Assembly (NCBI GenBank): GCA_040757115.1 | Contig: JBFLYA010000214.1 | Span: 1-6,424 of the forward strand | Length of the DNA stretch: 6,424 nt | Direction of reading: 5' to 3' | DNA from: a bacterium | Lineage (GTDB): Bacteria; UBA9089; CG2-30-40-21; SBAY01 | Shown: positions 1-6,198 of the stretch, piece after piece | Layout: each line of letters begins with the position of its first letter | Numbering within the stretch: position 1 is the stretch's first letter | Position numbers and translations under genes: made by a program | The notes under the pieces: model-generated | The model's input: only the letters and a program-made list of their open reading frames with translations | The model's database searches: none | What the model was told of the DNA's origin: nothing

Positions 1-125
1 GTTTTCCACAATCAATTTCTACCTATTTCTATAAATTTCAATCTATTTCTATTATCTTATCTCCATATCACTCTTATCTCCTTATCCCCTTTCTTACACT
101 TTTGATATATAGCCTGAACGGTTAC
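1..125 (-). repeat. 125-bp arm of a GTAA-ended MITE-like element, exact inverted copy of 755-879
   Basis: This stretch is the exact reverse complement of 755-879, pairing 1 with 879 and 125 with 755; I compared all 125 positions and found no mismatch. Its right end reads, on the minus strand, GTAACCGTTCAGG, the same terminus as the complete element at 755-991. It is therefore probably one half of a second copy in the opposite orientation, with the other half left of the window. The match stops at 125/126, as expected at an element boundary. The 8 bases just outside (126-133, ACAGATTT) would be its target duplication; the partner copy lies outside the window and cannot be checked. No open reading frame is supported here. 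Confidence 0.85.
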
Positions 126-164: not shown

Positions 165-746
165 ATGTTGCGGGGTGCAATTGCATTATTTTGTTTAATG
201 GTTATTTTGGGGTTAATATTAGTTAATAGTAATTGGTTTTGGGATACAATTGCCCCGGTTTATTATGAAGACATAGTTTATAAATATGCCGAAAAGTATG
301 ACATCGACCCTTTTTTAGCTATGGCTATTATCAAAGCTGAATCAAGTTTTTATTCTGGAGCACAATCGCCAAAAGGGGCAATTGGTCTGATGCAAATAAT
401 GCCGGCAACGGGTAAAGAAATTGCCTCTAAATTAAACTTAAGACCATTTGCGGTTTGCGACCTATACGACCCGGAGATAAATATTCAAATTGGATTATAT
501 TATTTCGTCAAATTACAAAATAAGTTTAATGGAGATATATATTTAACTTTAGCCGCATACAATGGTGGAGCAGAAAATGTAAAAAAATGGCTATCTGAAA
601 AGAAAATGGGAACGATAAAGTCAAAAGCGGACATTAAAAATATACCATTTAAGGAAACACGAGAATTTGTCCATGATGTTATCTGGAATTACCTGTGGTT
701 TAAAAATATTCATAAAATCAGGAAGGTTTTACAAATCAAAATATAA
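165..746 (+). CDS. Membrane-anchored lytic transglycosylase, SLT domain
   Basis: This 193-residue protein probably cleaves the beta-1,4 glycosidic bond between MurNAc and GlcNAc in peptidoglycan, releasing 1,6-anhydro ends, at the outer face of the inner membrane. Residues 4-20 form one hydrophobic segment with no lipobox-like signal, so it is likely an uncleaved anchor. The SLT fold occupies about residues 33-180. Visible motifs are AIIKAESSF with the expected catalytic Glu59, GLMQIMP (74-80), AYNGG (131-135) and ETREFVHDV (164-172). The length is typical of small single-domain enzymes of this family. The ATG at 165 has GGAG at 154-157 just upstream. The gene sits between perfect 125-bp inverted repeats, and the downstream element begins 8 bp after its stop. 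It was probably once 20 bp from pgsA. The family is clear; the exact physiological role is not. Confidence 0.93.
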   Translation: MLRGAIALFCLMVILGLILVNSNWFWDTIAPVYYEDIVYKYAEKYDIDPFLAMAIIKAESSFYSGAQSPKGAIGLMQIMPATGKEIASKLNLRPFAVCDLYDPEINIQIGLYYFVKLQNKFNGDIYLTLAAYNGGAENVKKWLSEKKMGTIKSKADIKNIPFKETREFVHDVIWNYLWFKNIHKIRKVLQIKI

Positions 747-754
747 CTTATTTC
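747..754 (+). repeat. Left copy of the 8-bp target-site duplication CTTATTTC
   Basis: CTTATTTC here directly abuts the left end of the 755-991 element, and the same 8 bases recur at 992-999 directly abutting its right end. Perfect direct repeats touching both inverted termini are the footprint of transposase-mediated insertion. The left copy starts immediately after the transglycosylase stop codon (744-746). Confidence 0.85.
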
Positions 755-991
755 GTAACCGTTCAGGCTATATATCAAAAGTGTAAGAAAGGGGATAAGG
801 AGATAAGAGTGATATGGAGATAAGATAATAGAAATAGATTGAAATTTATAGAAATAGGTAGAAATTGATTGTGGAAAACAACAAATTTCCATAAATTTCT
901 ATTAGTTTCTATTAATTTCAATTTTTTTAATAATATCTCCCTATCTCCTTAATCTCCACATCTCCTTTTGTTACACCACCTGAACGCTTAC
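755..991. mobile_element. 237-bp palindrome-like MITE with IS66-type ends
   Basis: The element starts GTAACCGTTCAGG at 755 and ends with the complement of GTAAGCGTTCAGG at 991, so the terminal inverted repeats match at 12 of 13 positions. It is flanked by an 8-bp direct duplication (747-754 and 992-999). Ends beginning GTAA and 8-bp duplications are the known combination for IS66-family insertion sequences. The element has no room for a transposase, so I infer a non-autonomous derivative moved in trans. The two halves (755-879 and 880-991) are loosely complementary along their length, both purine/pyrimidine-skewed with GGAGATAAG-like and GAAATAG-like words on opposite strands; transcribed RNA could fold into a long imperfect hairpin. 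The left half is identical to 1-125 inverted; the right half has diverged. The family assignment rests on ends and duplication length only. Confidence 0.85.
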
Positions 992-999
992 CTTATTTC
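992..999 (+). repeat. Right copy of the 8-bp target-site duplication CTTATTTC
   Basis: This is identical to 747-754 and immediately follows the right terminus of the inserted element. It lies 12 bp before the pgsA start, so the insertion landed in the former transglycosylase-pgsA junction. Confidence 0.85.
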
Positions 1000-1011: not shown

Positions 1012-1584
1012 ATGACATTAGCCAATAAAATTACTATTTTAAGAATCTTATTAATTCCGGTTCTTGTTATCTTTTTAGTCTATGGTTACCGAAAAAATCT
1101 ACTACTTTTTCGCCATATCGCCCTGGGTATTTTTATCCTTTCAATGATAACAGATGCCTTAGACGGAATGGTTGCCCGTGCATTTAAACAAAAAACTAAT
1201 CTTGGAAGTTTATTAGACCCGCTGGCAGATAAATTACTTCTGGTAACTACCTTTGGAGTTATAGGATATATTGGAAAAATCTCATTGGGAATAGTAATCC
1301 TGGTGATAAGTCGAGAAGTGATTATGACATTAGGGTGGATTATTCTTCATATATTTAGTCCTAATACGATTACGATTAAGCCAAGCATCCTGGGAAAGAT
1401 AACAACTGCCCTTCAAATGTTGACAATTATTTGTTGTCTGATAGAAATTCAATATCCAATTATTATTCGCTGGACGCTTATTACCACTATGGTAATTTTT
1501 ACTATCGTCTCCACACTTCATTATATCTTTGTTGGTAGTCAGATGCTTAATGAAGAAGGAAAGGGAAAGAATAAAGGAGATTAA
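1012..1584 (+). CDS. pgsA: CDP-diacylglycerol--glycerol-3-phosphate 3-phosphatidyltransferase
   Basis: PgsA transfers the phosphatidyl group from CDP-diacylglycerol to glycerol-3-phosphate, giving phosphatidylglycerol phosphate, the committed step to phosphatidylglycerol and cardiolipin in the inner membrane. The protein has 190 residues, normal for the family. It shows the full CDP-alcohol phosphatidyltransferase signature: Asp48, Asp51-Gly52, Ala55-Arg56, then Gly65, Asp69 and Asp73 with the standard spacing. The N-terminal NKITILRILLIPV segment and GKITTALQM (128-136) are typical of PgsA rather than PssA. Several hydrophobic segments fit a multi-pass membrane enzyme. No clear Shine-Dalgarno sequence precedes the ATG at 1012; only the target duplication and AAGAATAAAAAA lie before it. 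The C-terminal tail is short and charged, and its stop codon directly abuts an intergenic octamer repeat. Confidence 0.95.
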   Translation: MTLANKITILRILLIPVLVIFLVYGYRKNLLLFRHIALGIFILSMITDALDGMVARAFKQKTNLGSLLDPLADKLLLVTTFGVIGYIGKISLGIVILVISREVIMTLGWIILHIFSPNTITIKPSILGKITTALQMLTIICCLIEIQYPIIIRWTLITTMVIFTIVSTLHYIFVGSQMLNEEGKGKNKGD

Positions 1585-1608
1585 CCACGAAGGCACGAAG
1601 ATACAAAG
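1585..1608 (+). repeat. Three tandem octamers of the CCACGAAG type
   Basis: Immediately after the pgsA stop, three 8-bp units follow one another: CCACGAAG (1585-1592), GCACGAAG (1593-1600) and the more diverged ATACAAAG (1601-1608). Similar TAACCACGAAGGCACGAAG strings are common dispersed intergenic repeats in genomes of environmental bacteria. No coding role is supported. Related period-8 and period-10 tracts occur in this window at 6098-6117, 6141-6160 and 6205-6228. Confidence 0.65.
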
Positions 1609-1733
1609 GAGAATGAAAATAAAGGCTGAAGGAAACAGCGTTCAAAACTTCAGCCTATATCCTTCAGCCTTCAGCCTATTTTCAGGAGAAACGCTCATGC
1701 CCACAGGGAGTGGGCACAAAGGAGGATGAAAAT
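1603..1733 (+). repeat. Repeat mosaic downstream of pgsA
   Basis: An 18-base word, ACAAAGGAGAATGAAAAT, occurs at 1603-1620 and again with one change at 1716-1733. Between the copies are a 10-bp inverted pair, GGCTGAAGGA (1624-1633) with TCCTTCAGCC (1660-1669), three copies of TTCAGCCT (1649, 1663, 1670), and a compact hairpin with a 7-bp stem TGCCCAC/GTGGGCA and a 5-base loop (1698-1716). The hairpin is not followed by a T-run, so it is not a standard intrinsic terminator. An open frame running through 1529-1729 is made of this repeat material and I do not regard it as a gene. Confidence 0.6.
1676..1691 (+). repeat. 16-bp duplicate of the pilB ribosome-binding region
   Basis: CTATTTTCAGGAGAAA at 1676-1691 is repeated exactly at 1802-1817, where it supplies the AGGAG of the pilB start. 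The upstream copy is followed by ACGCTCATG rather than by a convincing gene. It looks like a duplicated segment or part of a dispersed repeat carrying an incidental ribosome-binding-like sequence. Confidence 0.6.
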
Positions 1734-6078: not shown

Positions 6079-6097
6079 AAGTAACTATTCAGCCACT

Positions 6098-6181: not shown

Positions 6182-6198
6182 GTAACCGTTCAGGTGGT
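6182..6198 (+). mobile_element. Third GTAA-type element end, partner not in window
   Basis: GTAACCGTTCAGGTGGT here matches the right terminus of the 755-991 element, read inward, at 16 of 17 positions, and its first 13 bases equal that element's left end exactly. The similarity stops after 6198. No matching opposite end is found before 6424, so this is either a truncated end or the left end of a longer element continuing past the window. The 8 bases before it (6174-6181, AAAAATCG) would be its target duplication. Confidence 0.65.

What the first reader, a model, noticed from the sequence alone, without database searches (positions are those of the whole stretch)
747..999. Small non-autonomous element with IS66-like ends and an intact 8-bp target duplication
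A 237-bp segment has 12/13 terminal inverted repeats starting GTAA and is bounded by perfect CTTATTTC duplications. IS66-family elements are known for GTAA-starting ends and 8-bp duplications, so this looks like a MITE moved by an IS66 transposase. Its palindrome-like interior is unusual for a simple internal deletion of an IS. I do not recognise this element as a named one.
Basis: partly seen in the sequence, partly recalled or inferred. Interest (0 to 1): 0.7.

Follow-up and report, generated by a model that had tools for sequence, protein, structure and literature searches.

The report
High-copy MITE family with IS66-type ends
This 237-base DNA segment is one of about 135 near-identical copies of a small gene-less jumping element whose ends match those of IS66-family (ISBst12-group) transposons, so it is a well-documented new example of a known kind of bacterial genome parasite.

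Summary
The genome holds 135 left and 135 right ends of it (0 in controls). Three sites filled here are empty in a congeneric genome, with a single 8-mer; a fourth empty site confirms the window's own second, truncated copy (1-125). Of 55 single-ORF IS66 loci from other bacteria, 37 carry near-identical ends (0 with control motifs), 10 with perfect 8-bp duplications. It is therefore a MITE of the ISBst12 group of IS66. New details: at least four further non-autonomous families share these ends in this genome; homologues occur across the phylum with conserved outer ~50 bp but unrelated, still self-complementary centres; targets are AT-rich (AAAA/TTTT-like) and mostly intergenic. Open points: no intact matching transposase gene was found in this genome, and about half of the assembled copies lack a duplication, only partly explained by assembly joins.

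The parts
747..754 (.). left copy of 8-bp target duplication CTTATTTC
   Evidence: identical to 992-999; the same filled site with the same duplication is present in congener G001
755..991 (+). 237-bp non-autonomous element (MITE), left end GTAACCGTTCAGGCTATATATC, right end GTAAGCGTTCAGGTGGTGTAAC on the other strand; folds as one long imperfect hairpin
   Evidence: 135+135 ends in the genome, empty sites, fold z -11.9
755..767 (+). left terminal inverted repeat GTAACCGTTCAGG, matching the ends of the IS66 tnpC element in the same genome
   Evidence: 12/13 complementary to 979-991; 13 identical bases to the IS ends in L061
979..991 (-). right terminal inverted repeat (GTAAGCGTTCAGG on the - strand)
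992..999 (.). right copy of target duplication CTTATTTC
1..125 (-). left half of a second, oppositely oriented copy; the contig ends at the hairpin centre
   Evidence: 100% complementary to 755-879; its right half lies at the end of contig C292
126..133 (.). target duplication ACAGATTT of the second copy
   Evidence: same 8-mer flanks the half copy on C292; congener G001 has the empty site with a single ACAGATTT joining both flanks
165..746 (+). neighbour: lytic transglycosylase (SLT) gene lying between the two inverted copies; its stop codon directly abuts the 747 duplication
   Evidence: PF01464, E 5e-32
1012..1584 (+). neighbour: CDP-alcohol phosphatidyltransferase gene starting 12 bp after the element's right duplication
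   Evidence: PF01066, E 6e-31

Best explanation
[quoted passage not shown] The transposase recognises the terminal GTAA(C/G)CGTTCAG repeat (and perhaps the conserved purine-rich ~35 bp inside it), joins the ends to staggered cuts in AT-rich, mostly intergenic target DNA, and repair leaves an 8-bp duplication. Shown here: ends, copy number, 8-bp duplications, filled and empty sites, an IS66 element with the same ends in the genome, and the same ends on IS66 elements elsewhere. Inferred: that this transposase type did the work, and the catalytic steps.
For: 135 left and 135 right ends; copies 98-100% identical; 24/52 paired copies with perfect 8-bp duplications, and 10 exact 8-mer matches between contig-end half copies against about 0.1 per shifted control; empty sites in congener G001 with single ACTTTTTT, AAAACTTT and AATTTTCT and ACAGATTT; a copy nested inside another MITE with duplication GAAAAGGA; the genome's one full-length IS66 tnpC bounded by perfect GTAACCGTTCAGGTA inverted repeats 1563 bp apart; 37 of 55 ISBst12-type IS66 loci with both ends at least 9/11 to GTAACCGTTCA, 0 for two control motifs, 10 with perfect 8-bp duplications; intact 1493-bp IS66 copies in G065 with GTAACCATTCAGGGGG / GTAACTATTCAGGGGG ends and 8-bp duplications; published ISDge4, ISBst12 group, transposing with ends GTGACTACTCAGCA / GTAACTGCTCAGCA and 8-bp repeat CCTCGATG (PMC12898284).
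Against: The only full-length matching tnpC in the genome has two in-frame stops and no flanking duplication. Congener G001, which carries the same MITE, has no close relative of that tnpC. 23 of 52 assembled copies have no recognisable duplication. Mobilisation by an IS66 transposase was not tested experimentally.
Confidence: 0.93

Rival explanations
1. The element is a MITE but is moved by a transposase of another family that also makes 8-bp duplications; the end similarity to IS66 is convergence.
For: No intact tnpC with these ends was found in this genome or in the congener; 8-bp duplications occur in several IS families (own knowledge).
Against: The terminal match is shared with 37 of 55 IS66 loci and with none for control motifs; the genome's own IS66 element has 15-bp identical ends; in 0.8 Mb sampled no gene-carrying pair of such ends with a duplication was seen.
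Confidence: 0.05
2. The SLT gene (165-746) and its two flanking inverted copies form one composite transposon.
For: The gene lies exactly between two identical, oppositely oriented copies.
Against: Each copy has its own 8-bp duplication (CTTATTTC and ACAGATTT). In G001 the right copy is present while the left site is empty and the gene is in place, so the two insertions were independent.
Confidence: 0.01
3. It is a structural repeat (REP/ERIC-like hairpin) kept for a host function such as transcription termination or mRNA stability, rather than a mobile parasite.
For: Full-length hairpin; 22 of 30 copies lie outside ORFs although 71% of random points fall inside ORFs; hairpin centres remain self-complementary despite sequence turnover.
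Against: 8-bp duplications, precise empty sites and transposon-type ends show it is mobile; intergenic bias is expected from selection and AT-rich targeting; no terminator-like site was called at 600-1100 and no Rfam family matched the element. A host effect could still be secondary.
Confidence: 0.03
4. The repeats or duplications are artefacts of assembly.
For: Contigs often break at the hairpin centre, and half copies at contig ends pair by 8-mers, so some joins may be wrong.
Against: The same filled site with the same duplication occurs in a separately assembled species, and four other sites are empty there.
Confidence: 0.01

Closest known systems
IS66 family, ISBst12 group (e.g. ISDge4 of Deinococcus geothermalis, PMC12898284)
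   Same: terminal motif GTAAC..TCAG and 8-bp target duplication; single-ORF members of ~1.5 kb have the same end motif
   Different: 237 bp, no transposase ORF; only the terminal 13-18 bp are shared with the IS in the same genome
Bacterial MITEs such as Chunjie (Geobacter), Correia (Neisseria), ERIC
   Same: size 100-250 bp, AT-rich, hairpin-forming, intergenic, tens to hundreds of copies (PMC10969869)
   Different: end sequence and duplication length point to IS66; the review read here does not mention IS66
Other GTAA..TTCAG-ended repeats in the same genome (118, 151-158, 198-278 and 240-242 bp families)
   Same: same terminal 12-bp motif and perfect 8-bp duplications
   Different: different sequences next to the ends; some are only partly hairpin-forming

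Membership tests
MITE (non-autonomous miniature transposon) | short, no transposase gene, terminal inverted repeats | tested here: met
   237 bp, 12/13 TIR; the only ORF over it is an incidental 60-aa frame
MITE (non-autonomous miniature transposon) | many near-identical dispersed copies | tested here: met
   135 left and 135 right ends, scored copies 98-100% identical
MITE (non-autonomous miniature transposon) | target duplication and precise empty sites | tested here: met
   24/52 perfect 8-bp duplications; four empty sites in the congener
IS66 family / ISBst12 group-derived | ends starting GTAA and matching the family terminal motif | tested here: met
   GTAACCGTTCAGG equals the ends of the genome's IS66 element; 37/55 relatives share the motif
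IS66 family / ISBst12 group-derived | 8-bp target duplication | tested here: met
IS66 family / ISBst12 group-derived | a matching IS66 transposase available in the genome | tested here: inconclusive
   one tnpC with matching ends but two in-frame stops; four other short IS66 fragments
IS66 family / ISBst12 group-derived | mobilisation by an IS66 transposase | not testable with these tools
   needs a transposition assay

The most novel reading that the evidence does not exclude
The element is a modular foldback MITE: in each lineage of the phylum the outer ~50 bp is conserved while the centre is replaced by an unrelated sequence that is itself self-complementary, which would mean that the hairpin itself is needed for IS66-type mobilisation or survival, or that a palindrome-generating (template-switching) step is part of its life cycle.
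Probability: 0.2. Interest if true: 0.65.

Novelty: new member of a known kind. Interest (0 to 1): 0.42.

Why it matters
In the searched open-access literature I found no description of an IS66-derived MITE family, and the prokaryotic MITE review I read does not mention IS66. Here one genome carries about 135 copies of one such family and several others with the same ends, giving clean filled/empty site pairs, a target preference, and a terminal motif shared by ISBst12-type elements across phyla. It also probably explains part of the fragmentation of this genome into 462 contigs, and shows how the flanking 8-mers of half copies can be used to order contigs.

Tried and rejected
A composite-transposon reading of the SLT gene was rejected by the empty left site in G001. 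Derivation by simple internal deletion of the genome's IS66 was rejected: similarity is limited to the termini. The 526-aa weakly IS66-like protein in G001 (L139) has only a sub-threshold PF03050 match and no GTAA-type ends in its locus, and was set aside. Explanation of the copies without duplication by swapped joins was tested: four flanks find a partner among contig-end halves, against 0 to 2 per shifted control, so most remain unexplained. Covariation across the outer stem was uninformative, because the arms are nearly invariant.

Full report
Observation. The window is a whole contig (G000:C214) of a 4.32-Mb, 462-contig genome, 99.9% complete. Positions 755-991 hold a 237-bp segment that starts GTAACCGTTCAGG, ends CCTGAACGCTTAC, and is flanked by perfect CTTATTTC copies at 747-754 and 992-999. 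The segment folds end to end into one imperfect hairpin (RNA MFE -88.5, z -11.9; DNA parameters z -7.5).

Copy number. A search of the own genome scored 40 full-length matches at 98-100% identity, with more candidates unscored. Counting ends, there are 135 left ends and 135 right ends, and none of the backward-read control. Many of them lie about 100-125 bases from a contig end, so the assembly often breaks at the hairpin centre. This window's first base is such a break.

Target duplications. Among 52 copies with both ends assembled, 24 have a perfect 8-bp duplication, 5 match at 6-7 of 8, and 23 match less well. Duplications are A-rich in the first half and T-rich in the second (AAAACTTT, AATTTTCT, ATAAAATT, AAAAATTC). 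Left and right half copies at contig ends can be paired by identical 8-mers: 10 pairs against about 0.1 per shifted control. One pair joins the window's 1-125 half copy with the end of contig C292.

Filled and empty sites. The congeneric genome G001 carries the same MITE at 98-100% identity. The window site is filled there too, with the same duplication. Three other sites filled in G000 are empty in G001 and carry one copy of the 8-mer: ACTTTTTT, AAAACTTT and AATTTTCT (at the second, left-flank similarity runs only about 50 bases, so it is the weakest of the three). The pairing of the window's half copy with C292 predicts an empty site reading ATAGATTTC-ACAGATTT-GATGGAAATT; G001 has exactly that. 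The two copies flanking the SLT gene were therefore inserted independently; the simplest history is one insertion before and one after the two species separated (inference). Another copy sits inside a different MITE with a GAAAAGGA duplication.

Source of the transposase. The genome has five matches to the IS66 transposase domain. One (L061, contig C277) is full-length, with two in-frame stops; it lies between perfect inverted repeats GTAACCGTTCAGGTA 1563 bp apart, with no flanking duplication. In the same order an intact 468-aa single-ORF IS66 has ends GTAACCGTTCAC; NCBIfam and Pfam name it IS66. In genome G065 intact 1493-bp IS66 copies have ends GTAACCATTCAGGGGG / GTAACTATTCAGGGGG and 8-bp duplications AAGTAAAC and CATGATTC. 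A scan of a GTDB collection brought 80 IS66 loci. Of 55 long enough to test, 37 have both ends at least 9/11 identical to GTAACCGTTCA, 10 of these with perfect 8-bp duplications; the reversed and complemented control motifs gave none. In the literature, ISDge4 of the ISBst12 group transposed experimentally with ends GTGACTACTCAGCA / GTAACTGCTCAGCA and an 8-bp repeat (PMC12898284). The IS66 assignment is thus supported at the level of the ISBst12 group.

Other families and distribution. In an 0.8-Mb sample of the genome the strict motif GTAA[CG][CT][AG]TTCAG occurs 154 times, against 0 in reversed sequence; by extrapolation (inference) there are several hundred ends genome-wide. At least four further non-autonomous families share the ends with perfect 8-bp duplications (118, 151-158, 198-278 and 240-242 bp). 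Homologues of the 237-bp family occur in other genera of the phylum: 230 bp in G005 (duplication GAATATAG), 208 bp in G017 (ATAAAAGG), 170-193 bp in G003 (7 of 8). Their outer ~50 bp align well, but the centres of G000, G005, G003 and G017 share no detectable similarity, while each centre is more self-complementary than shuffles (z -2.9 to -8.3; these are single-base shuffles, so the weaker values are modest evidence). This is the most interesting detail: the palindrome persists although its sequence changes. The cause is not known.

Setting and effect. In 30 copies tested, 22 lie outside ORFs of 100 aa or more, against 29% of random points. In the window, the element separates an SLT lytic transglycosylase gene from a CDP-alcohol phosphatidyltransferase gene on the same strand. 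An effect on expression is possible but untested.

Verdict. A MITE mobilised (in the past at least) by ISBst12-type IS66 transposase, confidence 0.93. It is a new member of a known kind. The mechanism of end recognition and 8-bp staggered insertion is inferred from family knowledge and from the empty sites. The chief gaps are the missing intact transposase and the copies without duplications.

Noticed in passing
window 6081-6096 and 6182-6197: Two further IS66-type ends of other repeat families (GTAACTATTCAGCCAC and GTAACCGTTCAGGTGG followed by TAATTTACCGCAGAGACGCAGAG) at the right side of the window, both in the same orientation, without matching partners.
   Followed up: partly
window 1584-1730: Short dispersed-looking repeats (accacgaaggcacgaag; ctattttcaggagaaa twice; paired AAGGCTGAAGG / CCTTCAGCCTT) between the pgsA-like and pilB-like genes.
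   Followed up: no
L061:1273-1285: The tnpC reading frame itself contains GTAAGCGTTCAGG, an internal copy of the terminal motif.
   Followed up: no
own genome, copies such as L002, L012, L016, L017, L029: About half of the copies with both ends assembled lack an 8-bp duplication although their sequence is ~100% identical; only four such flanks found a partner elsewhere.
   Followed up: partly
G001:C223:464-914 (L114): A site filled by the 237-bp MITE in G000 (L024) carries a different ~258-bp insert at nearly the same place in G001, with a GTAACCGTTCAGGTATAG-type sequence near its end.
   Followed up: no
L380 4223-4976: A 754-bp GTAA-ended stretch with perfect AAAATTAT duplication containing another such element with its own CGTGGTTA duplication: apparently nested insertions.
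   Followed up: no
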